Source of the DNA: Harmothoe impar
Lineage: Eukaryota; Annelida; Polychaeta; Phyllodocida; Polynoidae
Length of the DNA stretch: 64,000 nt
Direction of reading: 5' to 3'
Assembly: GCA_947462335.1 (NCBI GenBank)
Contig: OX381720.1
Coordinates: 48,348,981-48,412,980 of the forward strand
Shown here: positions 6,181 through 41,691 of the stretch, one piece after another
Layout: every line of letters begins with the position of its first letter
Numbering within the stretch: position 1 is the stretch's first letter
Translations under genes and position numbers: made by a program
Notes under the pieces: generated by a model
Told to the model about the DNA's origin: nothing
Databases searched by the model: none
What the model saw: the letters and a program-made list of their open reading frames with translations, nothing else

Positions 6181-7660
6181 TAATACTCTTTTTACTGTAT
6201 GTTAACGATGTTGTAAAATGTGTAAAAAATTGTAAATTAAAACTATATGCGGACGATACAGTTATTTATGTAGCTAATCATGATTTTGAAGTAGCTAAGC
6301 GTCTCTTGCAAGAGGATCTCGATTGTTATCATGCATGGTGTCAGCAAAATAAATTGTCGGTAAATATTACAAAAACCAAGTTAATGATATTTGCAGCCAG
6401 CAAACGTAAACTAAACACACTTAATGTAAACATGTATTTGGATAATGAACTACTTCAAGTTGTACCTAGTTATAAGTATCTTGGTGTAATTCTTGACCCC
6501 TTGTTAACTTATAATCTTCATCTCAAATTTGTTGCCAAAACTGTAGCCTACAAAACATATAAACTATGTCAATTGAGACCTTTTCTTGATAACAAATTAG
6601 CTATTAGATTATTTAAAGCTACAATTGTACCGTATTTTGATTATGCTGATATTCTTTTTCTTACAACTGCTGATACCCACCTTAAGCCTTTACAGTATGC
6701 CCAGAATCACTGTTTAAAAATCTGTTTGAAATATCCGCATCTGACGGAGACTCACATTGTACATAAGGATGCAAAGGTTAATATGTTAAAAGATAGAAGA
6801 CACGCCCACCTTTTGAACTACATGTACACGAGGGCTCAAAATGTTAAATATAGAGATATTAGGCTAAGACCCACCAGAGCATTTTCTGCTCCTATGTGTA
6901 AGGTTTTACAACCGAATGGCATAGCATATGAAAACAGCGTAGAGTTCTTTGGGGCAGTGAGCTGGAATGGCCTAACCACCCTACGGAGAAGCGCTCAGAG
7001 TCTAGACATATTTAAAAAAGAAACCAACACTGACCTGCTAGCGATGATACCATAGGGTGCCAGCCCTCCAGTCTCTTTGTCATCTCTGTAGTTCTCCCCC
7101 CCCCCCAAACTCCTATACTAACTAAATTGTCAACCATTTATTTTCACCCCCCCAGACTTTTCACAGAATTTTAAAATGAAATCAATACCCAACCTAAGTA
7201 ATTCTAAGTCCTTTTTGATTAATTTCCAAACCACCATATATATTCTTGTGTCGGTACCGTATTTAATCATTAATTTACCTGGTTTATCCCGAAGTATCAA
7301 CCCATAACACTGAACTACAGTGGGGATGAAGGATACAACCATTCTTTGAGCCGCTTTATTCATATTTTGTATAAATGTGTAACCTAATTACATGAAATTA
7401 TGGTATTTGTATGTGACGACATCTTTATGATTCTGTAAAACTACCGGTATGATCCTATGGGGGCATTTGCCTAGATGGGATCTTACCGGTACTGATGCAT
7501 TCCTTTAATTATGGAATATGCAACTAATGACCGATTGCAATATATTGGTTTATTGTTATATATGCTTATTGATTGATGAGGAAAAACCCTGTGTCAACCC
7601 AGGATGATATCATGTAAAAGCGAACGTAAATCTATGGCGAAATAAAGATATTCCAAACTA
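6181..7660 (+). mobile_element. 5'-truncated non-LTR retrotransposon (LINE)
   Basis: The insertion holds the 3' half of a reverse-transcriptase ORF, an untranslated tail and an AATAAAG signal near 7641. The flanks can be joined by comparison with the related family A sequence at about 2330-2430: there GACTTGCTTAAAGTCTGTGA runs on into the TCATA-CCAT-TTATATTTCC region, which here is split between about 6180 and 7670. This gives a paralogous empty site and places the ends within some tens of bases. The 5' truncation is usual for LINEs. Exact ends and any target duplication are not resolved. Confidence 0.8.
6183..7055 (+). pseudogene. Reverse transcriptase C-terminal part (5'-truncated LINE ORF2)
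   Basis: This is the tail of an RNA-directed DNA polymerase of a non-LTR retrotransposon. Reading from 6183 the frame gives ILFLLYVNDVV, then LYADDTVIY, the catalytic YADD box. After that come the thumb-type KYLGVILD motif and a C-terminal region ending in RRSAQSLDIFKK, as is common in the Jockey/CR1 group. The frame is open to a TAG at 7053. The endonuclease domain and the front half of the RT (palm motifs before YADD) are absent, so it cannot retrotranspose itself. No start codon is expected because the 5' part was lost on insertion. Clade assignment beyond a Jockey/CR1-like LINE is uncertain. Confidence 0.88.
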
Positions 7661-9669: not shown

Positions 9670-12600
9670 TTCTTTACTTTTCTGTGTGTGGTTATTATAT
9701 ACTGTAGTGATAGGAGTTGACCCAGGGTTTGGCTGATGTGGTAGTGGTGGAAGGTCGGTCAATGTTGAGGGGAGAGTTTAGGAAGGGGGCAGAACCCCTC
9801 AGGTCGTTAATATACCTTACTCTAGATGGGAGCCAGATAGCCCCCAGAGCTGCAACCTCCACATTGCTCCCTTCATCTACAATCCAACCGTCAGCTTGTT
9901 GGGTCTCCCCCAGGAAAACCTTCAGGAGATTGCCAGATCCTGCCAATCCAACCTAAAAAGATCCAAAGTAAATAGTTAGCTGACTTGCCGTCATGGTTTT
10001 CATGGAGATGAGAATATGTCAAGCTGTCGACCATTTTTAGGTTTTTAATTCTTTCTGTTTTCCCTCTTTAACATCTTACATTAACATCATTCTCTTTGGT
10101 TTGGGGTCCCTGCTTGGGTAATAACAAAAGCTTGCTGTCAAAATCATGTAGTAATATGACTTCACTTCACATAGTGCCGGAATAAATTCACCCATATTCC
10201 AACACAATAATACAATTCCATTTACAATAGAGTCTTGGGACTGTGCAGTGCAATGTGTTTATATCCATTCTCATACTTTTAATCCAGAAATAACAACATT
10301 ACAAGTGGGTTAATTAGAGAAGTAATTCAATTAGATTTAAAAGTTGTTAGGAACCGCAGTGATGACTCAAATTCACATTTGTATAATCAATAATTATCCG
10401 GGGCTACGAATTGAATTATATCACACTCAGGCCTAAAGCCAGATATTACAGTGATATGGTAATGGCATCTCGCTGAGCATACAATAACCTGTCACGCAGA
10501 GTGATAGCTGAATACCATGATTTTTGGCCAAAGCTAGATTAGATTAAAAAAAAGAATTTTCACCTTAGAAAATACTGAGTAGACGTTGCTCAGGCCTGGG
10601 TTCCTGTAGAAAAGACTTTTAGAAATTAAGCTAAATTGTAAGTTCTGAAGCGGTTTCTATGACAGTCTTGTGAGGGAAAATCTTCTGAAAATGATATCCT
10701 CTGATCTCTCCTGATGTGAAATTATGGAGCTCAAAGATGACTTTGTAGCAATTCAGCTGATGCCTGCATTGTTTATCATAGGTGAATTCATCGGCTAGGA
10801 CAGAACAATGCAAGTGTGATATCATTGATTTTCAGGATTACCTTTTAACAAGAGATCCATCGTCATAACTTTGGCTTACTACCATATAATATCCTGTCAT
10901 TAGTAATCATCACCCTCCCCAACACACACATCCCAGCCCTTACCAAGGACATGATATTTGATAGACCCCTAGTATGGTGAACAATGCCCATTACTATGGA
11001 GCCAATCTGAGCAGAAAACGTTGTTAGCCACCCGAAGTGAGATTTATTGTTATTCGGGGCTAATTCCCCAGACTCTACCAAATGGAGACAATATACAGCT
11101 TTCCCCTGCATTAGCTGTTGAGAGACTGGGGTTGGGCTAGATAAGCCTCCTGCTATTTTTACCATTGATTTTTGACTTGCAAAACAGAGCAGTCCATTCC
11201 ACACCCCCATGATGTGCTGGTATTAAGACTTCATGCAAAGCATTGCCTACACAAGTCTCCATTTATGAAGCTGTCATAGATAATGTGTCTACATTGAAGA
11301 AGTCTATTTCCACTTCTGTTCATATATGTTTGAAACAGTCAGAATATTCCCAATAGCAACAGTCAACTAGATATCTTGAGATTTCAATTTTAGATTTCAG
11401 CAGTCATTTTGTCACTGCAAAACGTGGACGGATGGAAAAATGTGTCTCCCAATATAAGTTTGAATAGTGAGTTTTCTGCTTTTGGCTGGGCAAAGTGGTC
11501 CTCGTATATTTGTTCCATAATAGAGATAGGGGAGGCAATGAGAGAGGGTTCAAGTCATTTGGTGAAGAGTCATGTGAGTGAGGCAGTATAGCTGACCGTA
11601 CCCCTCTCACTCACCAGCTAATGGCGCCCATTCATTGCGGGCCCCTGCCAACTTGTTCACCCATCTATTCCAACCCCTCATTCCATGTACCCTATCCACT
11701 ACTCTCTCCTTTCTAAATCTCTAACTACAGTTCAACAAGATCCTGGTAGAGTAGTACTGATAGGCCAATGACCTCAACCCCTTTAATGACCACCGAAATA
11801 ACAGCTAGAATTTTGAAGCTACCAAATTAGTCCTCAACTTGCCTCTACTTCTACTTCAAGAAAGCATTGCACTGGTGCTTTCATTTCCCTGCTCTCCCCA
11901 CTGAATACCCCTCCACCTGTAAATAATGGTCAGGCTGTAAAAAGTGATTGGGTGGGCGGCACCCAGGACAGAAGTAGCTGGGACTCCATCAGAGCCTGGT
12001 ACACCCTGGAGAAAGTAAAACGAGCCAGGTATTCTCCCGTTCTCAATACCCCTTCCTCTCCCCTGACCTGCCAATCTGATGACCCCCATACTGGTCATGA
12101 CACCCTCCAGTTAGCAATACAAAAGTAAGCTAGTACCATGATCTATGTTCAAGGCCTGCTTTTGAATGTATACCAGAGATGGTATATCGACCACAATTTT
12201 ATATAGGATTCTAATATTTATACGGCCACATCAACAGATGCAGCTTTGACATGGTATCATCATTACAACATCAATACATGCAGAAAGTGTGACATGAAGA
12301 GTACTTTTCTTTCCATTTTCAGCATAATTTGGAGTAGTTCTCAATGAGATTAGTGATGGTGAAAATAGCCTATCCTTGCCGGGTGACCCTTATATGTAGT
12401 TAGCCTACTATTTTTATTTATGATGAAATAAAACTAGGGAATGTAGCAAGCTTTTGATATCCTGTAATATGTAGCCTTGTGTTGGCTGCTGATAAAATAG
12501 CCTGAATCGTTAGGAACCAGAAGTGCAAGCCTCTAATGGCATGCCATTGGCTGATGGAAAGGAGGCTACGGATAATGTAATCAATTAGAACTCTCCAGCC

Positions 12601-32152: not shown

Positions 32153-32158
32153 TATGTG
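32153..32158 (+). repeat. Target site duplication, left
   Basis: TATGTG directly before the element, repeated at 41686-41691. Confidence 0.9.
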
Positions 32159-32616
32159 AGTAGTATAGTATGTATCGGAACGGGACTATAGTTAAGTACT
32201 GTTTATTACTCAATCGACATGCAGCCAATCAGAGGCCTCCATTTGGTCACGTGACCGGAAGTGACCTACTTAGGGGATTAGTGGTGACGTCACGTGACCT
32301 AGTTAGCCAATCAGAGGCCTCCATTTGGTCACGTGACCGGAAGTGACCTACTTAGGGGATTAGCGGTGCATTCTGGGTAACCCTGCAGCCAATCAGAGGC
32401 CTCCATTGGGTGACCGGAAGTGACCTACTTAGGGGATGGTGCATTCTGGGTAACCTACTGACCTACTTAGGGGACCGGAAGTGACGTCATATGACCTAAT
32501 TTAGGATCACGTGATCGGAAGTGACCTGATGAGTCACGTGACCGGAAGTGACGTCACACGACTTAATGGCTAACCGGAAGCGACCTGATTGATCACGTGA
32601 CCGGAAGAAGAAGAAG
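32159..32616 (+). repeat. Left terminal inverted repeat with clustered TF-type motifs
   Basis: The outer 350 bases or so match the right repeat almost perfectly; the inner 110 bases are the same words rearranged. It contains about eight CCGGAAGTGAC-type words (ETS-like) and several CACGTGAC (E-box), TGACGTCA (CRE) and AGCCAATCAGAGG (CCAAT-box) words. GGTCACGTGACC is a perfect palindrome. ACCTACTTAGGGGA and GCATTCTGGGTAA also recur. The repeat lies beyond the 3' end of the polymerase gene, so it may serve in integration, replication start or outward transcription. Confidence 0.9.
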
Positions 32617-32663
32617 TTTTTTTTTGTTTAGGATCCCGTGACTGGAAGCGACGTCGTCACATG

Positions 32664-32691
32664 AGTGACGCTTTAAGAGACTGCGCGACTT
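32664..32691 (+). repeat. Inner inverted-repeat arm, left
   Basis: GTGACGCTTTAAGAGACTGC followed by GCGACTTA matches, inverted and with four differences, 40683-40710. It shows the symmetry of the element ends reaches further in than the terminal repeats. Confidence 0.6.
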
Positions 32692-32812
32692 ACTAGTAAA
32701 AGAAGCCGTATGATAATAAAAACACAACAATATTTTCTTTTAATTTTTTTTTTATTTATTTTTTTTCAATCTTGATAAACACTCTATTTTTGAAAAGATG
32801 CACACGCTTATT

Positions 32813-32818
32813 TTTTAT
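32813..32818 (-). terminator. Poly(A) signal candidate of the polymerase gene
   Basis: AATAAA on the minus strand, 13 bases past the stop codon; another candidate lies near 32750. Confidence 0.5.
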
Positions 32819-32830
32819 TATTTTTTTTTT

Positions 32831-35800
32831 TCATATCTCTAAAGGACTCGTTGTCACACCGTCAGAATGCACGCGACGCTTATAATACAAGTAGCGCACG
32901 CCGTCTTTCTCTATGGTGTAGGTGACCATTTTGTTTCGCACCACTTTGAAATTTCTATTTACAGCAATGAGAGTTTTTCGTTGGCGAAGAACATCCAAGA
33001 AGGCGTCTGGTTCCTGGGGGTTTTGTTTCTTCTGTACGCCTTTTGCACTCCATTTTTTGGATTTTCTTTCACCGGTGTCGCTGACTCGATCGTAGCAAAT
33101 GTAAGTCTTAGGGTTGAGACTTAGGATCCCGTCACCTTCCCACTCCGCTTTCATGAGCCCCGAAGTTCTCAGATCGTGAAGGTACCGTCTCTCACAACAT
33201 CCGCCGGGCGGCGCACACCATTCTCGCACTCTTTCCGTTTTTGTCTTCACGAAAAGCTCTAAGTGCTCGTCGCACACCGCTGTCGGAAGCCACTTTCGTT
33301 TCTCTCTGAAGTACGTCTCTCTCAGGCGAGGTTTCACTAGGTCATCCAACGTGGCACCGCTGAGAGCCATGTAAAGACTGTCGGTGTCCATTTGACAAAG
33401 GGCATAATCGCGCCGATCGACGAATCTATCCAAGAAGTCGTATGTGAACTCTAACATTTTCAACTTCGCGTACTGGTATACCATGAACCCTATCTGAATA
33501 GGGAGGTTGTTCTTGACCGTTTTCGGTTGTAGTTCGACTTCAAACAGATCGGAAGTCAACTCGGACGCCTTTTTGAAGCGCCACGAATTGGCCAATAGTT
33601 CGAACTTCCGACTGTCAGTGTATCTCACCGCCGTGTGTTTTTCTTTGTTGCAGATTGTTTTACCGTACGTTGCGTTTCCCATTAACTTGTAACAGTCTGA
33701 CAGAATTTTCTCGTTCTCGTTCACGTCGCCACGTCTTCGCGCCGCCGTCACTTCGTCCGCGAAACTGGCAAAGGCGCGTTTAGGTAGGTATTCTACCACT
33801 AGCTGCACTTTGGTGACTATCAAACCGTGCTCTAAATACCACTTGAGAAGCGGCGTTCCCAAGAGAATATTTTTTCCGTGGTAACTCCCTATCAGACATC
33901 TCTGAGGCGTGCTCAACAGCTTTTCTTCCTGCGCAAAGTCTGACATGTGAGGGCCTATGTCCGATTTTGAAACGGTCGCGTTCTTGAAAACGGGGGTCAT
34001 TTCTTCGAAGTACTCTCGTAGGTGAGGCGGCGTAGTGATGTCCACTTGAACTAAACCGAACATTTTCTCCTCTTTCACAGCGGAAAGGATGTCGCTCTCG
34101 CTCATCGCGTTTCGAGACACTTTCAAAGCGTCAACCTTCCAGCGTTGTTGGGAGGCCTTGACCCGCTCATCTCGACGCTTCATCTCTCGCCATTCGCACT
34201 CCCACACGACGACCAGCTTGTAACCTAACGCTTTCAAGTAAGCGCTTACTCTGGTCGTTCTGTCGCGTCTCTCCTCTCTCAGTGAAGCGCACTGATATCG
34301 GTGCGACGGTATGCACTCGTGAGCGTGGAACCAACACCCGTGAAACTGGAAAACCGTATTAGAGGCCGCGTGAAATCCGTCCACGCGAATTCTCCGACAG
34401 CCTACCGCCATCTCGCCGCCGTTCAGAGCGTGGCGCAGTTTCACGTCGCGGTCGTGCTCTACGAAGCGTAACCACTCCAAAGCGCTGTGAGAGTTTCTTT
34501 GCCTGATTTCGGGCTTGAACTCGGTCTCGGGCCGTCTCACCGCGTAATAGCCCGTGCAGTGCGCTTCGCTCATGCAGCGCAAGTACAGAGAGTTAGCGTC
34601 TAGTCCTAGGATGTGTTGGCACGGTCTCGCTTCTTCGCCGTACTTGTGCTCCCTTATCCGCGTGGTGCCCTTCTCGTGAAATCTATGGAAGATGATGGAA
34701 GGACCGCCGACTAGATTCTCTTTGATCAGAGCGTGGAGGACGGCGTCGAACTGGGGAAACGTTGTGAACGCGTCTTCTAGGTTTTGGAAGAGGAAGCGTA
34801 AAGTCAAACCGGCGAGAGAAACTCCGTCTTTCAACATGTCGATGCCGCGATCTTGGAAAAATTTAGCGTGATTTTTCAGAGCTTCTATGAAAGGTTTCAC
34901 GTCTTTGTTGTTGTAGTGGATCAAGTAGTCTTCCATAGTTTGCATCTTCTCGTCGGACCAAACTTTCTGACATGCGGCGTAGTCGGATTCGGACATTTTG
35001 ACGCCCGTCAGCTCGCTGTCGAAAGCCGATCTCGGCGGCAGCGTTCTGTTTGCCAGTTTCCTGGTAGACGTCATCCATTCGTAAGGAAAGTGACCTTTCT
35101 CTTCGTTCCTGGTGAAAGCTCGCAAATAGGTCGCGTAGTTGTAACCGGGTGCCAAATAGTTGACTACGTCCAAGAAAACCGTGTGCTGTGTGTAAACCGC
35201 CAAGTATTGATTGCTTCTCTTTATGACGCTGAATTCTTGGTTTCTTCGGTCTCCGGAGGCGAAGAACGAGTGAAGGCGTATTTTGATCAGGTTCAAGTCG
35301 TAACGCCCCGAGTTGAAGCCCACCACTGGAGCTTGACGGATGTATCTCAGAAGACGCTTCTTCAGTTGAACTAACGGGTGTCTGGTCTGAGCCGCAGCGA
35401 AGCCGCCTGGAGAAGGGGTGGTGAACGTCGCCTCCTCCAGCAGGAGAGCTTCACCTATCGCCGCATCTAACTTCGCTAACGTCGGTCGGTAAAGTTCTAG
35501 CACAGCTTCCCCGATCGCTTTGGCGTTCTCGTTTATGTGATTTAAAACTCGGTCCAACAAGGGGTCGGAATCTGCGTCGGACGCTCTGACGAAGCAGACG
35601 GGCCCCTCCCACCCCGGAAAGTCGGATGCGACGCTAGCCGACAAAGGGACGTGATCCCACAGCAGGGACACGTGCTCCGTCGACGGTTCTTTGCACGGTC
35701 TGAAGAAAGCCTCGAAATCGAAGGCGATCTTGTAAGGGTAGATTCCGGAATGTCCGTCGGGGGGAAAAATGGAGAAGTCTGCTAGCGCTTCGAAAATCGT

Positions 35801-36958
35801 TCTCGAATTTTGGTAGATGCCACCTACGTAGCGCAACTTGACTTGTCGGCAAGAGGAAAGCTGGTTCCTGTGTCTCTTCAGCAAGAACTCGGTGGTGAAC
35901 GCCGCCTTACACTTGCAACATTCGTATATGCCCGCGTACGCGTTGAAGTCCGTGACGAGAGAGACGTGCAAACCGCCTTTCGCCGTCAGGTGTAGGTTGA
36001 CTTTACCTCGGGCGGCCACAGTTCTGGAAGGCGGTCTGATCAGAGTAACGCGTCTTCTCAACTTCCGCCCCGGCACTTGACGCGACGCGGTGTAAACCGC
36101 TATTTGTACGTCAAACAAGTTCTCTAACGCGGGTAAGTCGCGGATGTTCAGACCCGGAAAGGATTCAGGTGTGGCAGCGGGACAGAACTGACGTAACAAA
36201 TCTGAAGCGCGCTTGCTGGTGTTGTATAAGTGAAAAGAAATGCAGCGGAAGATGCAGAGGTTGTCCTTGTTGGGAAAATCTAACACGCCGCTTCTCTTTC
36301 CAACTCGACCGGCCTGAGTGATCCTACCGCCGATGGGGAATTCCCCCGGTCCCATGTAAACGCAGATGTTCAAATTGGTAGGAAAAAGAACGTGCCACTT
36401 GGTGTCAGCGTCGCAAAGTTTCCGTACCTCCTCGCAAGCGACGGTGTTTTGCATCTTTGAGAGGAGCTCTTCCAAAGTTTCTGAATTAGTTACAGTAGGG
36501 AGCGGTTGTATGAGAGTTGCGTTGTTCTGGGAGGCGTGGAAGTAGCGCAGTTTGCTCTTGTCTTCTCTGTGTTGTAACAGTAAGCCTACCGAGAAACCCA
36601 CTTTGTATCTGAATCTTTGTGTCAAGTGAATGCGACGCATAGTATCTACAGCGTCACTCAACTCGCCGGTTGGTAGCCTGAAGTTTGTTACACTCACGCG
36701 AGTCCCGTGCATCCTGACGCCCGTTTGTATCGCAGGCCAATTCGCCGTGAACGTTTCCTCCCCGTTCGGTACAGCACATATGCGCGGAGGGACGGTCACC
36801 CCGTCCAGAGATTCGCGTCGACAAGCGCTCTTTCGGCAATCCCCTTCGCCGCATAGAGGGCAAAACTTAGCTACTACTCTACAATTTTCTACGTGTCTCT
36901 CGTGGTTGTACGCTCTTTTAAACATTTTGAAACACTTTTCGCATACGTACTGTGTCAT
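32831..36958 (-). CDS. polB: Protein-primed-type family B DNA polymerase (Polinton type), 1375 aa
   Basis: Replicative polymerase of the element. The start is the ATG at 36958 (AAAAACATGACA context); an upstream GTG-initiated extension is not credible. Order: C2HC finger (about 4-26); Cys-rich FCPLCGEGDC; a region with DNLC (D232, C235) and a later H331 that recalls OTU-type proteases; second C2HC finger (345-370). Exonuclease: ExoI DFE (414-416), ExoII N549...YD554, ExoIII YNNKD (682-686). Polymerase: motif A DANSLY (787-792), motif B KLMGNATYG (1091-1099), motif C DTDS (1191-1194) and KTY (1284-1286). Between A and B lies an insert with FHGCWFHAHEC and GYKLVVVWECEW (about 870-925), resembling a VSR-type endonuclease module found in Polinton-type polymerases. 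All catalytic residues are present, so it should be active. A terminal-protein domain is presumed N-terminal but not seen. Confidence 0.95.
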   Translation of the reverse strand: MTQYVCEKCFKMFKRAYNHERHVENCRVVAKFCPLCGEGDCRKSACRRESLDGVTVPPRICAVPNGEETFTANWPAIQTGVRMHGTRVSVTNFRLPTGELSDAVDTMRRIHLTQRFRYKVGFSVGLLLQHREDKSKLRYFHASQNNATLIQPLPTVTNSETLEELLSKMQNTVACEEVRKLCDADTKWHVLFPTNLNICVYMGPGEFPIGGRITQAGRVGKRSGVLDFPNKDNLCIFRCISFHLYNTSKRASDLLRQFCPAATPESFPGLNIRDLPALENLFDVQIAVYTASRQVPGRKLRRRVTLIRPPSRTVAARGKVNLHLTAKGGLHVSLVTDFNAYAGIYECCKCKAAFTTEFLLKRHRNQLSSCRQVKLRYVGGIYQNSRTIFEALADFSIFPPDGHSGIYPYKIAFDFEAFFRPCKEPSTEHVSLLWDHVPLSASVASDFPGWEGPVCFVRASDADSDPLLDRVLNHINENAKAIGEAVLELYRPTLAKLDAAIGEALLLEEATFTTPSPGGFAAAQTRHPLVQLKKRLLRYIRQAPVVGFNSGRYDLNLIKIRLHSFFASGDRRNQEFSVIKRSNQYLAVYTQHTVFLDVVNYLAPGYNYATYLRAFTRNEEKGHFPYEWMTSTRKLANRTLPPRSAFDSELTGVKMSESDYAACQKVWSDEKMQTMEDYLIHYNNKDVKPFIEALKNHAKFFQDRGIDMLKDGVSLAGLTLRFLFQNLEDAFTTFPQFDAVLHALIKENLVGGPSIIFHRFHEKGTTRIREHKYGEEARPCQHILGLDANSLYLRCMSEAHCTGYYAVRRPETEFKPEIRQRNSHSALEWLRFVEHDRDVKLRHALNGGEMAVGCRRIRVDGFHAASNTVFQFHGCWFHAHECIPSHRYQCASLREERRDRTTRVSAYLKALGYKLVVVWECEWREMKRRDERVKASQQRWKVDALKVSRNAMSESDILSAVKEEKMFGLVQVDITTPPHLREYFEEMTPVFKNATVSKSDIGPHMSDFAQEEKLLSTPQRCLIGSYHGKNILLGTPLLKWYLEHGLIVTKVQLVVEYLPKRAFASFADEVTAARRRGDVNENEKILSDCYKLMGNATYGKTICNKEKHTAVRYTDSRKFELLANSWRFKKASELTSDLFEVELQPKTVKNNLPIQIGFMVYQYAKLKMLEFTYDFLDRFVDRRDYALCQMDTDSLYMALSGATLDDLVKPRLRETYFREKRKWLPTAVCDEHLELFVKTKTERVREWCAPPGGCCERRYLHDLRTSGLMKAEWEGDGILSLNPKTYICYDRVSDTGERKSKKWSAKGVQKKQNPQEPDAFLDVLRQRKTLIAVNRNFKVVRNKMVTYTIEKDGVRYLYYKRRVHSDGVTTSPLEI

Positions 36959-37076
36959 GTTTTTTTTTTTCACTCGGTTACCAACTACTTAGCCGTCTAA
37001 CTATCTATCTATCTATCTAGCCATCTATCAATCTGTCGTCTATGTAACTATCTTTCTGTCTGCTGTCTGTGTATCC

Positions 37077-37108
<32 letters not shown>

Positions 37109-37174
37109 CATACAGCGTACGTCAAACGCTGTGTGTGTGTGTGTGTGTGTGCGCGCGTGAGCGTTGAGCGTCTC
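36959..37174. repeat. Microsatellite gap between the two minus-strand genes
   Basis: (CTAT)n at about 37001-37020, (CTGT)n at 37075-37107 and (GT)n at 37131-37151 on the + strand. There is no AATAAA or TATA box on the minus strand here, so the upstream gene has no visible poly(A) signal and polB no visible promoter of its own. Confidence 0.7.
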
Positions 37175-38402
37175 TCATTCCGAATCTATGCCGAGATATT
37201 TCAGAATGATCTCTGTTTTGTCATCCAACTCTTTGAGCGCTCTGGCGGACAGCGTCACCCCCTGCTGTGTGGGTTTTTTGTCAGGACCTTCGTACTTGCG
37301 CACGTGGACGAGGTTCTTACCGCTGTAGTAGCTCACAGCTGCGTACACTTCGCCCGCCTCATCCAGCACTGCGAACCAGGGGGTGTGATTAGGTTTTCCT
37401 TGCGCGGCCGCTGTGTCGCGTATGCGCACCACTGCGCGGATATCGGCGATGCGTGCTATGAGCTCGCGCAGCGCGTCGGCCGTGAAGTGCACTCGCTTGC
37501 TTCTGGTCAGAGACGCCTCTTTCACCTGGCCGTCTTTTGTGTAGCGCGGCCTCCTAGACAGTCTAGCCACGTCCTCCCAGATCTCCAGCGTCAAAGCTCC
37601 GTCTAAGCAGAACTCTAACCCGAGTGTTTTCTCTGCTTCTTCTCGTCCATCTCCTTCTTTTTCTTGTATTTTTCTCTTCTTAGTGGGCCTTGTTGTTCTG
37701 GAACTCACCTTAGAACGTTTCACACCCGCAGGATGAGTAACACCATCAGCGTGAGCTGAATCAGCAGCAGAACCGATAGCAGGAGCAGCGTCAGCGCTGG
37801 TGGTATCGGAGGTCTCGTTGTTGGAACAGCGCAGCCACACGCCGTCCGTGCTGTGTGTAGCGGTAGAAGATGAAGCGCCGCCGCCGCCCTCGTAAGGTGG
37901 CGGTGAGGGCAGTCGCCACGGACCGGACGGGGGGGCGCTAGCAGTGGAGGAAGTGAGGTCGAAAGGTCGAAGAGGGAAGCCGAAAAACGTACCGCTCACC
38001 CCTTGCCCTTCGGGTTCTTCGTACGCCTCGTCGTCAGCGTCGTTCTCTGTCTCACCCTGTTGCTGCTCCTCCTCCTCCTCTTCTTCTCGGTTCAGGGGCT
38101 GAGTGTCCGAATAGCTGTAACTCTCAGCGCGAGCGGCGTCGAGGGCGTCCGTCGATGTAGTGGTGGAGGAGAGGGGCTGTGCAACGTGCGGCAGGTCATC
38201 AAAGTCATCAACAGTAGTGGGGAGGTAAAAACCCGGTTGCCAGTACTGCGCTGTGCCAGGAGCGTTGTCGTCAGTAGTAGTAGCAGTAGCAGCAAGTGCA
38301 GCAGAAGCAGCCGCAGCAGGCGCAGCCGCAGCAGACGCAACAGTAGCAGGCGCAGCAGCAGCCTCAGCAGGCGCAGCCGTAGCAAGCGCAGCAGTAGCAG
38401 GC

Positions 38403-38435
<33 letters not shown>

Positions 38436-38764
38436 GCAGGCGGGACGGCGGTAGCAGCGGCAGCGCGCTTAGCAGCAACGTGTACCGTCGCGAGTGTAAC
38501 AACGTCGCTAGCACGACGACTGCTACCAGTAGTACTACTAGTACTACTACCACTACTACTACTACTGCTACTACTAGTGCTACTGCTACTACTACTACTA
38601 CTACTACTGCCGCGAGCGCTCGCTACAGCAGGAGGGTGATAAGACCAACCGGCTGCGGCGGTAGTCTCATGTTCAGTAGCAAGAGCAGGCACTGACGCTA
38701 AACGAACGCTGTTCCGCGTAGTCTTCTTGTTCTTGAACGCCGCTAGCTGTTGTCTTTTGCTCAT
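37175..38764 (-). CDS. Low-complexity protein with two C-terminal PC4-like modules, 529 aa
   Basis: Probably a single-stranded-DNA-binding replication or transcription factor; this rests on fold-level pattern, not firm homology. The start is the ATG at 38764 in a perfect CCACCATGA context. Residues 50-165 are Ser runs then Ala-rich repeats, 227-255 are acidic, PPPY (288-291) is a WW-binding/late-domain type motif, and RPTKKRKIQEK (359-369) is a likely nuclear signal. The last 150 residues hold two similar modules (about 380-442 and 464-526). The second, SYYSGKNLVHVRKYE...GVTLSARALKELDD, has the PC4/p15 pattern of a GK-V-IR-Y strand pair followed by GISL and a helix. A TATA box lies about 60 bases upstream. 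With polB it would make a replication pair. Whether other Polintons carry an equivalent I do not know. Confidence 0.85.
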
Positions 38765-38823
38765 GGTGGTGACTGTAGAGAGCAGCAAAAAAGAATGAGT
38801 GAGTGAATGGAGGTTTCCAAGCC

Positions 38824-38832
38824 CCTTATATA
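38824..38832 (-). promoter_or_regulatory. TATA box of the PC4-like gene
   Basis: TATATAAGG on the minus strand, 60 bases before the ATG at 38764. A start about 30 bases downstream gives a leader of about 40 bases and argues against any longer N-terminus. Confidence 0.65.
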
Positions 38833-39722
38833 CGCCTTCTCGCTTCTAGAGCTAAGCTACTTACCGACCCTGTTCAGCTGCCGCCGGCTGGCCGGCGGCC
38901 ATTCACAAAGAGAAACAAAAAGACATAAGGCATGACGTTTTCAGCTGGATCCCTTTCCCCCCCCCTCTTTTGAGAGATCGACTGTGATGATGAGCTAAGC
39001 CGCTTACCACCCTGTTCAGCAATTCAACGCGCATTAGCTGTATAAAGGGTTAAGCGGTTGCTGCCTGCCGTCGACTGACCGGCGGCGGCCATTCACAAAG
39101 ACATAAGGTATGACGTTTTCAGCTGGATCCCTTTTTGAGGGATCCACTGTGGTGAGCTAAGCCGCTTACCACCCTGTTCAGCCATTCAGCGCGCGTTAGC
39201 TGTATAAAGGATTAACGGTAACGGTGATGAGCTTACAGTGTGTATACAAAAAAAAACTACAGGAGGCGTGTGGCGTGAAGCAGGACCCCCCTAAGACGAA
39301 CGTGCCTGTCTGTGAGTAGAGGCGTGTGCATGTGGTGAGCGACTTAAGTGTAAGACAAAAATCGCCACCTCCTGCCGTGGTGAGTAGACCGGGCCGGCCA
39401 GGCGGGCGGGCGGCCGGCTAGTTCAATAGGGAGGGGTGACAGCTGCCTAAGGCTGTGCATGAAAAAAAATCCGATTTTCACCTGACCTCTGACGTTTGTT
39501 ACAATGAATGTCAGAGGGAGGGAGACGTCCTCGGGTAGGGGGTAGGAGGTATTAAGGCTATGAGTGAGGAAAAAACACCGTTTTCAGCTGGTCTCCACGG
39601 ATAGCGATGCCACACCCCCTCGTCATCTAAGCTCTTAAGGAGCGGAGCGGCTGAAAAAGCGTCATGCGGACAGGGGGCTAGACAGCTGGAGCGCTGTTGG
39701 AAATGGGATTAAACTCCCTCTG

Positions 39723-39731
39723 TATAAAAAG
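39723..39731 (+). promoter_or_regulatory. TATA box of the death-domain gene
   Basis: TATAAAAAG, 143 bases before the ATG at 39866. The intervening leader includes a CCACCACCGCC-type triplet repeat. Confidence 0.55.
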
Positions 39732-39865
39732 CTCTCATTTCTGTTGGAAAAAAAACATATCACCTCTGACCCCAGTAACGGCTACTACCACCACCACCGC
39801 CACCACCACCACCGCCGCCACCGCCGCCGCCGCCGCCGCTGCCGCCGCCGCCAAGACGAGACGAG

Positions 39866-40615
39866 ATGGCTCAAGCTATTCCACTTTCAAGCTCGCCTTC
39901 ACCGCCCGGTGCGCCTGAAAAAAAGTTAATGCGGCTTGACGACGTGAGACGCGGCGCGAGGCAGCAGACCGATGATGGGGAGACCCGACAGGTAGGACAG
40001 CGGCGGTTAGCCTATAGCGACGCCTTGCTTCGTCAACTAGGTAAAGAGTTGAGCGGCTGTTGGAGAGAGTTGGGCAGTAGCTTAAAAGTCAGCGCCGCCC
40101 GTATGGATGCTCTAGTAGAGCGCAGTGTCAAGACACCGGAGGAGCTGTGTACGGCGATGTTCCGAGTGTGGTGGGGTGAAACCCCGCATCGTCATAGATG
40201 GGGCGAGCTCGGTCGCGTCTTCACCCGCATAAGACGCATGGAACTGTTGGCTCAGTGGATGGCCCTTCTCCACAGACAGGGGTTGGATTTCGAAAACCCC
40301 GACTCGCGCGCGATGCACAAGCACTTGGGCACCCTCGGCAGACGTCTGGGTAGCAGGTGGAAAGAGGTGGGGGACCATTTAAAATTGTCGCCTGAGAGGT
40401 TAGATAAGATCGCTGAAGAATGCGAATACGGAGGAAGTCCCGCTGAGTGGGCCTTCCGAGTGTTGAAAATGTGGCAAGATGAAGCTGACGGCGCCGGCGG
40501 TACGCCTTTTGAACTCCTTCGAGTGTTGACTGAGGACATGGGAAAGTTTGGCCTCGGCATCGCGATATTACTTGACTTTATCAAGCAAGAAACAACGAGA
40601 ACGACGGACATGTGA
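39866..40615 (+). CDS. Tandem death-domain protein, 249 aa
   Basis: Two death-fold domains follow a disordered head of about 50 residues. Domain 1 (about 52-133): LLRQLGKELSGCWRELGSSL, KVSAARMDAL, then a VWWGET helix and a terminal helix. Domain 2 (about 151-238): HLGTLGRRLGSRWKEVGDHL, KLSPERLDKI, a KMWQDE helix and FELLRVLTEDM. The spacing of the W in helix 2, L-L-S/R-LD and the W of helix 4/5 is the family pattern, and the two domains resemble each other. No caspase, kinase or membrane segment is present. The ATG has G at -3 and +4. In host proteins such domains assemble apoptosis and NF-kB complexes, so a bare pair in a mobile element could act as a decoy adaptor; that is inference. It may have been captured from a host gene, though no intron is visible. 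Confidence 0.88.
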   Translation: MAQAIPLSSSPSPPGAPEKKLMRLDDVRRGARQQTDDGETRQVGQRRLAYSDALLRQLGKELSGCWRELGSSLKVSAARMDALVERSVKTPEELCTAMFRVWWGETPHRHRWGELGRVFTRIRRMELLAQWMALLHRQGLDFENPDSRAMHKHLGTLGRRLGSRWKEVGDHLKLSPERLDKIAEECEYGGSPAEWAFRVLKMWQDEADGAGGTPFELLRVLTEDMGKFGLGIAILLDFIKQETTRTTDM

Positions 40616-40682
40616 ATTGTTGTGTTTTATTTTCATACGTCTTCTTTATTAGTAAGTAAAAAAAAAAAAATATCATAACAAT

Positions 40683-41236
40683 TAAGACGCGCGATCTCTT
40701 AAAGTGTCACTTCCTCCAGTCGCAGCTGATCGCCTCATCGCAGCACGTGATAAACAAAAAAAAAACGAAGAGACACGCTTCTTCCTCTCGAGAGGAAGAA
40801 GCGTGTCTCTCGATTGAAATCTTTTTCTTTTCTTTTTTTCTTAAAAGAGACAAACACCCCTTAGAGTGCTCCCCCACCCCCCTAGAGTGCCCCCCTCCCC
40901 CCTCCCCCCCTCCCCCCCACCACCCGCCCCATGCATCCTAAAAGCGCCCCCCTCCCCATGCATCTTAAAGAGGCCCCCCTCCCCCCCTCCCCTCCCCTCC
41001 CCCCCCTTATACACTCTAAAGAACGCTTCTACCTAGTTCAATAAGTCACTTCCAGTCGCTCGTAAAAAAATAAAAAATGAAAAAAAAATGAAAAAAAACT
41101 TATATCGTAGTGTTTTTTATTAGTTTACCGAAAAAAAATAAGAGACTCGCCTCCTCCTCCAAAAAAAAAAGATATCACATTTTAAAGCCCGTGACCCCTT
41201 AAAGACGCTCATCTCTTCATTAAGTCGCGTGACGTC

Positions 41237-41238
<2 letters not shown>
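40683..41238. repeat. C-tract and CTTAAAG-type repeats at the right end of the element
   Basis: The inner inverted-repeat arm (40683-40710) is followed by the palindrome, then degenerate units of CTTAAAG/CTAGAGTG words alternating with long C tracts (40857-41010), A-rich stretches with AATAAA near 41068, and a last CTTAAAGACGCTC at about 41198. There is no gene. The left end of the element has no counterpart to this 500-base stretch. Confidence 0.6.
40769..40810. terminator. Perfect 42-bp palindrome after the death-domain gene
   Basis: AGAGACACGCTTCTTCCTCT followed by C and then its exact reverse complement, centre between 40789 and 40790, 154 bases after the stop. It could form a 3'-end hairpin in the transcript or a cruciform. 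Arms with no mismatch in a mobile element suggest selection or recent origin. Confidence 0.6.
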
Positions 41239-41267
<29 letters not shown>

Positions 41268-41685
41268 CTTCTTCTTCCGGTCACGTGATCAATCAGGTCA
41301 CTTCCGGTCACGTGATCCTCAATGAGGTCACTTCCGGTTGGCCATTAGGTCATGTGACGTCACTTCCGGTCCCCTAAGTAGGTCAGTAGGTTACCCAGAA
41401 TGCACCATCCCCTAAGTAGGTCACTTCCGGTCACCCAATGGAGGCCTCTGATTGGCTGCAGGGTTACCCAGAATGCACCGCTAATCCCCTAAGTAGGTCA
41501 CTTCCGGTCACGTGACCAAATGGAGGCCTCTGATTGGCTAACTAGGTCACGTGACGTCACCACTAATCCCCTAAGTAGGTCACTTCCGGTCACGTGACCA
41601 AATGGAGGCCTCTGATTGGCTGCATGTCGATTGAGTAATAAACAGTACTTAACTATAGTCCCGTTCCGATACATACTATACTACT
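41239..41685 (-). repeat. Right terminal inverted repeat
   Basis: Reverse complement of the left repeat: the same ETS-, E-box-, CRE- and CCAAT-type words, ending ATACATACTATACTACT. The inner edge is a (CTT)13-type tract, against a much shorter GAA tract on the left. The order of words differs in the inner 110 bases. Confidence 0.9.
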
Positions 41686-41691
41686 TATGTG
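41686..41691 (+). repeat. Target site duplication, right
   Basis: TATGTG directly after the element. Confidence 0.9.

What the first reader, a model, noticed from the sequence alone, without database searches (positions are those of the whole stretch)
32159..41685. A reduced Polinton-like element that kept its polymerase but shows no integrase, ATPase, protease or capsid genes
Seen: 6-bp duplication TATGTG, AG...CT ends, terminal repeats of about 450 bp and three intact genes. Known: such ends belong to Polintons/Mavericks, which normally encode integrase and virion genes in 15-20 kb. Inference: a replication-competent but integrase-dependent lineage, or a new small class of self-replicating element using Polinton-type ends.
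Basis: partly seen in the sequence, partly recalled or inferred. Interest (0 to 1): 0.9.

Follow-up and report, generated by a model that had tools for sequence, protein, structure and literature searches.

The report
One half of a split Polinton
This 9.5-kb DNA element carries only the polymerase half of a virus-like Polinton, and the same animal genome holds a second element with the same ends that carries the missing integrase and virus-shell genes, so the pair looks like a virus genome divided into two parts.

Summary
In detail: a 9,527-bp element with 6-bp duplications TATGTG, AG...CT ends, ~340-bp terminal repeats and three open genes. The element ("A") has thousands of copies in the 1.51-Gb host genome: 13,855 matching termini, 2,568 polymerase markers; 30 compared differ by 0.058% on average. 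A second element of similar size ("B", ~10.5 kb, 1,641 integrase markers) has the same terminal sequence and its own duplication. It carries what A lacks: rve integrase, packaging ATPase, adenain-type protease and a double-jelly-roll capsid protein. Of 58 listed B markers on C1, 0 have an A polymerase marker within 8 kb, whereas 28 of 41 other capsid genes of this genome have a polymerase close by. Further elements with the same ends (C, D, E) have nearly the same length, though D shows no ORF over 104 aa. Most likely this is a bipartite Polinton with satellites, mobilised in trans and held near 9-10.5 kb by packaging. Mobilisation and packaging are inferred. Eight literature searches listed no segmented Polinton; bidnaviruses are the nearest parallel.

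The parts
32153..32158 (.). left target-site duplication TATGTG
41686..41691 (.). right target-site duplication TATGTG
32159..32500 (+). left terminal inverted repeat; the outer 60 nt are shared with elements B, C and D, and with E but for one base
41344..41685 (-). right terminal inverted repeat
32501..32616 (+). imperfect inner extension of the left repeat
   Evidence: pairs I4-I6
41265..41343 (-). imperfect inner extension of the right repeat
   Evidence: pairs I4-I6
32831..36973 (-). family B DNA polymerase of Polinton type, 1380 aa; stretches FDFEAF, FNSGRYDLNLI, YNNKDV, DANSLY, KLMGNATYGK and MDTDSLY present
   Evidence: reading these as exonuclease/polymerase motifs is recalled
37175..38788 (-). 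537-aa protein, low-complexity N-terminal half, C-terminal PC4-like stretch (possible single-strand DNA binding); weak
   Evidence: structure model unusable, pLDDT 43.8
39866..40615 (+). 249-aa protein with two Death-domain matches
38916..39215 (.). intergenic direct repeats (41 nt at 38916/39094; 66 nt at 38988/39150) between the divergent genes
   Evidence: D5, D9

Best explanation
The window element (A) is the replication part of a two-part Polinton. A supplies the DNA polymerase. B, a separate ~10.5-kb element with the same terminal sequence, supplies integrase, packaging ATPase, protease and capsid protein. Both are recognised in trans through the shared terminal ~60-100 bp: the polymerase copies both, the integrase inserts both with 6-bp duplications, and the capsid probably packages each one separately. 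That would hold every passenger near 9-10.5 kb. C, D and E share the ends and look like satellites of the pair. SHOWN: split gene content in the copies read, shared ends, own target duplications, marker counts in the thousands for A and B, near-identity of the 30 A copies compared, common length of listed pairs. INFERRED: trans-replication, trans-integration, packaging, and the advantage of the Death-domain and PC4-like genes.
For: A: 34 of 34 scored places (of 7,585 first-look candidates; the window copy included) have an open polymerase frame. In 30 of them, mean pairwise difference over 4,080 nt is 0.058% (max 0.196%), with 23 synonymous and 3 non-synonymous variable sites and 30 different left flanks (best-scoring places, so biased to intact ones). 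13 of 16 right ends read repeat the left 6 bp. Termini 6,924 + 6,931, control 0. A marker 2,568; B marker 1,641. B copy C1:492661-503194: integrase rve 3.2e-13 with D87/D149/E184, ATPase Adeno_IVa2 1.7e-5, Peptidase_C5 2e-4; capsid model pLDDT 86.4 matches DJR capsids of PBCV-1, Sputnik and mavirus, listed E 9e-17 to 3e-12; capsid gene open in 97 of 97 scored places (of 2,818 candidates). Of 40 end pairs on C1: 10 A (8,967-9,747 bp), 10 B (10,344-10,537), 0 with both markers, none shorter than 8,728 bp. The one copy read of each of B, C, D, E has a perfect duplication. Controls: 28 of 41 other capsid places lie within 12.5 kb of a polymerase; 0 of 54 B-type ones do within 20 kb; of 58 listed B markers on C1, 0 lie within 8 kb of a listed A marker and 4 within 20 kb, against 2.5 at random.
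Against: No virion, extrachromosomal DNA or trans-mobilisation was observed. Ordinary Polintons also live in this genome and could supply functions; their terminal sequences were not read. In the copies read, A and B ends agree only over the outer 98 bp. 13 of the 41 other capsid places have no listed polymerase within 20 kb either, so separation alone is not unique to B. The minor capsid assignment is a recalled resemblance, without a Pfam hit. Only zero-mismatch places are listed, so 'none with both' and the distances rest on listed places. Only one B copy was read through. Some of the 40 pairs sit in a duplicated stretch and are not independent insertions.
Confidence: 0.7

Rival explanations
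1. A and B are two independent non-autonomous derivatives of a full Polinton that shares their ends; the full element (extinct, or one of the ordinary Polintons in this genome) drives both.
For: Ordinary Polintons with adjacent polymerase and capsid genes exist in the genome. C contains polymerase-region stretches about 79-85% like A, so rearranged derivatives do arise.
Against: A and B as read keep complementary core gene sets with open frames; A polymerase variation is 23 synonymous to 3 non-synonymous in 30 best-scoring places; both have over a thousand markers; 0 of 40 end pairs hold both markers. Non-autonomous derivatives usually decay and shrink (general knowledge).
Confidence: 0.2
2. 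The replicating form is one ~20-kb molecule (A joined to B) that is resolved into two parts when it integrates.
Against: D and E pairs, in which no core gene was found, have similar lengths of 8.7-9.8 kb; A and B are scattered, with 4 of 58 listed B markers on C1 within 20 kb of an A marker against 2.5 expected.
Confidence: 0.06
3. B is a full mobile element using a host polymerase, and A is only its parasite.
For: B has integrase and virion genes.
Against: A polymerase is open in 34 of 34 scored places with mostly synonymous variation, and A has the highest count of the three types counted.
Confidence: 0.04

Closest known systems
Polinton/Maverick elements and adintoviruses
   Same: Polymerase family, rve integrase, IVa2/A32-type ATPase, adenain-type protease, DJR capsid, inverted repeats, AG...CT ends, 6-bp duplications.
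   Different: Known ones are single: vertebrate Mavericks average about 17 kb and reach at most 38 intact copies per genome, though some genomes hold hundreds of defective ones (PMC8097293, passages); three adintoviruses from flies are 13.3-14.6 kb, one complete and two near-complete (PMC8363768, passages). Here the core genes are divided between two elements with marker counts in the thousands.
Bidnaviridae (Bombyx mori bidensovirus)
   Same: Two linear segments of similar size with inverted repeats; Polinton-derived polymerase; segments packed in separate capsids (PMC4061559, passages).
   Different: ssDNA, 6.5/6 kb, parvovirus-type capsid and helicase. Here the capsid is DJR and an integrase is present.
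Drosophila Vesanto virus
   Same: Up to twelve segments, many with similar terminal repeats (PMC8363768, passages).
   Different: Bidna-like, segments of 3.3-5.8 kb.

Membership tests
Polinton/Maverick | Polinton-type family B polymerase | tested here: met
   On A; relatives and tree
Polinton/Maverick | rve integrase on the same element | tested here: not met
   Absent from A's three main ORFs; present on B; no pair with both markers among 40
Polinton/Maverick | packaging ATPase and adenain-type protease | tested here: met
   On B, not in A's three main ORFs
Polinton/Maverick | double-jelly-roll major capsid protein | tested here: met
   On B; fold search (model of a 95% identical protein)
Polinton/Maverick | minor capsid (penton) protein | tested here: inconclusive
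   B ORF L056:1093-2289 has no Pfam hit; resemblance recalled
Polinton/Maverick | inverted repeats, AG...CT ends, 6-bp duplication | tested here: met
Polinton/Maverick | single element of about 15-20 kb | tested here: not met
   A 8,967-9,747 bp, B 10,344-10,537 bp (10 pairs each)
Bidnaviridae | parvovirus-type capsid and SF3 helicase | tested here: not met
   No such Pfam hit among the 3 A and 9 B ORFs scanned; B has a DJR capsid
Bidnaviridae | two segments packaged separately | not testable with these tools
   Two elements shown; packaging not observable

The most novel reading that the evidence does not exclude
A living multipartite DNA virus of the Polinton lineage: at least two essential segments (A, B), possibly with C, D and E as further segments, each packaged alone in a small double-jelly-roll capsid of about 10-kb capacity, all inserted into the animal germ line by one integrase carried on B.
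Probability: 0.35. Interest if true: 0.95.

Novelty: new variant of a known kind. Interest (0 to 1): 0.87.

Why it matters
A dsDNA virus-like genome divided between separately integrating parts would be a new genome plan for Polintons and a parallel to the Polinton-derived bidnaviruses. The uniform ~9-10.5 kb length of listed pairs, even of types in which no core gene was found, is indirect evidence that Polinton DNA passes through a capsid; PMC8097293 states that Maverick virions have not been observed (abstract in listing). The A copies compared are very young, and by my estimate the whole group makes up some 4% of the host genome, so the question can be tested in living animals.

Tried and rejected
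Rejected: plain internal deletion of one full Polinton (many intact copies). Rejected: single-copy artefact. Tried without result: terminal-repeat DNA search (common words skipped); viral contigs with A polymerase, Death protein, polymerase alignment, capsid alignment and the terminus (no relative); PC4-like model (pLDDT 43.8, not used); solved structures with the 537-aa protein (none); Peptidase_C5 in the own genome (nothing, not even B's own copies, so uninformative); rve in the own genome (150 scored frames, probably mostly retroelements, not used). The C count was never obtained; E was not counted genome-wide. The host was not identified. Contig lengths of foreign polymerase relatives (some 9.3-10.1 kb, some 16-17.6 kb) are a lead only; those contigs could not be read. 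Literature searches: seen as listings with abstract starts (20 of 331 papers listed); the original adintovirus paper is not held.

Full report
OBSERVATION. The element at 32159-41685 is as described. TATGTG flanks both sides; the ends are AGTAGT...ACTACT; the inverted repeat is perfect for 331 nt and continues imperfectly to about 32616/41265. Three open genes encode a 1380-aa family B polymerase (PF03175, 1.5e-7), a 537-aa protein with a weak PC4-like C-terminus (1.3e-4, below cut-off) and a 249-aa protein with Death domains (9.2e-8).

COPIES IN THE HOST. The window lies in an unnamed 1.51-Gb genome of 736 contigs. Named relatives of the polymerase and capsid come from animals (Pomacea, Littorina, Branchiostoma, Amphiura, Styela, Lytechinus, Holothuria, Patella), so the host is taken to be an animal. 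The polymerase search scored 34 of 7,585 candidates, the window copy among them; all 34 are about 100% identical and open. In 30 of these the 4,080-nt polymerase stretch has the same length, mean pairwise difference 0.058%, maximum 0.196%, 19 distinct sequences and 26 variable sites, 23 synonymous and 3 not. These are the best-scoring places, so the figures favour intact and young copies. All 30 have different left flanks. For 16 copies I read the right end: 13 repeat the left 6 bp, 2 do not, and in 1 the end was not found. The terminal 33-mer occurs 6,924 + 6,931 times with up to 2 mismatches; the reversed control 0 + 0. That is roughly 6,900 elements of all types, about 66 Mb or 4% of the genome (my estimate).

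THE PARTNER. Pairing the 100 listed termini on C1 (the listed ones all have zero mismatches) gave 40 pairs and left 20 ends unpaired. 10 pairs hold the A polymerase marker (8,967-9,747 bp), 10 hold the B integrase marker (10,344-10,537 bp), 0 hold both, 20 hold neither. One B copy, C1:492661-503194, was read in two halves. Pfam on 9 of its ORFs finds: a P-loop ATPase (Adeno_IVa2 1.7e-5 and RNA_helicase 2.2e-4, both just over cut-off; Pox_A32 3.3e-4, just under); integrase, rve 3.2e-13, over cut-off, with a chromodomain match under cut-off; protease, Peptidase_C5 2e-4, just over cut-off; nothing for the other 6. The 435-aa ORF was assigned by structure. An alignment led by a 95% identical protein (P0122) folded with pLDDT 86.4 and matches double-jelly-roll capsids of PBCV-1, Sputnik, iridovirus, mavirus and faustovirus (listed E 9e-17 to 3e-12, TM by query 0.49-0.65, rmsd 5.8-15). 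The 398-aa ORF resembles a Polinton penton protein from memory only. Integrase D87, D149, E184 and the ATPase Walker A motif are present. The B capsid gene is open in 97 of 97 scored places (of 2,818 candidates). B integrase marker 1,641, A polymerase marker 2,568.

CONTROL. The same genome holds other Polinton-type polymerases (the window copy is not in that list) and other capsid genes, found with a sea-urchin capsid. I compared 68 polymerase places (one per frame out of 129 matches) with the 95 capsid places. Of 41 non-B capsid places, 28 have a polymerase within 12.5 kb; 13 have none listed within 20 kb (only best candidates are scored). Of 54 B-type capsid places, 0 have one within 20 kb. 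On C1 up to 91.9 Mb, of 58 listed B markers, 0 lie within 8 kb of a listed A marker, 2 within 12 kb and 4 within 20 kb, against 2.5 within 20 kb at random. So the method sees undivided Polintons where they exist, and A and B as listed are divided.

SHARED ENDS AND SATELLITES. In the copies read, the outer 60 nt of A, B, C and D are the same; E differs at one base, and differences set in after about 60-98 nt. Of the 20 pairs with neither marker, 8 hold the D marker (positions compared by eye), 8 share a tandem-repeat centre (E), 2 are C, 2 long ones (13,245 and 15,926 bp) are unclassified. The one D copy read has no ORF over 104 aa; the D marker has 893 hits. The one C copy read has a Death-domain ORF (1.1e-11), a pair of related ORFs of unknown family, and stretches about 74-85% like A. 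E, of which one left half and right end were read, has no ORF over 132 aa there. The one copy of B, C, D and E examined has a perfect 6-bp duplication each. No pair is shorter than 8,728 bp. Elements that need to keep no genes would be expected to shrink; that they do not points to a size requirement, most simply packaging (inference). Some neighbouring A and D copies lie about 39.5 kb apart in a repeated arrangement and are probably not independent.

MECHANISM. Most likely A and B are two parts of one Polinton: A's polymerase copies, B's integrase inserts and B's capsid carries any DNA with the shared ends. The Death-domain gene may block host cell death and the PC4-like gene may coat single strands; both are guesses from domain names.

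RELATIVES. In a FastTree tree of 50 polymerases A groups with P0002 and P0003 (support 1.0), then with P0004-P0006 and P0033 (0.999). The longest contigs of these six relatives range from 4.3 to 17.6 kb; a split in them is not tested.

LITERATURE. Searches listed no segmented or bipartite Polinton, judging by titles and abstract starts; of six papers I read passages only. Most subscription papers are not in that library, and Repbase was not searched. Bidnaviruses and Vesanto virus are the nearest parallels.

Noticed in passing
own genome, (polymerase places such as C3:73516633, C8:29648304; capsid places such as C14:31285672, C12:7109090, C21:2803142): The 28 best polymerase places (23 of them with frames of 1177 or 1189 aa) are not the partner of any listed capsid place, and 8 capsid places with 443-aa frames have no listed polymerase within 20 kb: possibly a second split system, or incomplete scoring.
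   Followed up: partly
L058:1509-2366 and L060:2376-3512: Element C carries two related ORFs (285 and 378 aa, sharing MSPRKKKQLPLEARRE...) in opposite orientation, without Pfam match.
   Followed up: partly
L060:399-1142 and window 39866-40615: Death-domain proteins on both A and C, only 25% identical over 194 columns: captured apart or diverged fast.
   Followed up: partly
C1:987894-1008600 and C1:1027412 onwards: A neighbouring D and A pair recurs about 39.5 kb further on, which looks like a recent host duplication carrying both.
   Followed up: no
P0151: A Holothuria leucospilota gene model joins a Polinton-type integrase and capsid into one 734-aa protein.
   Followed up: no
window 6306-7055: ORF that looks like a fragment of a non-LTR reverse transcriptase (recalled, not searched).
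   Followed up: no
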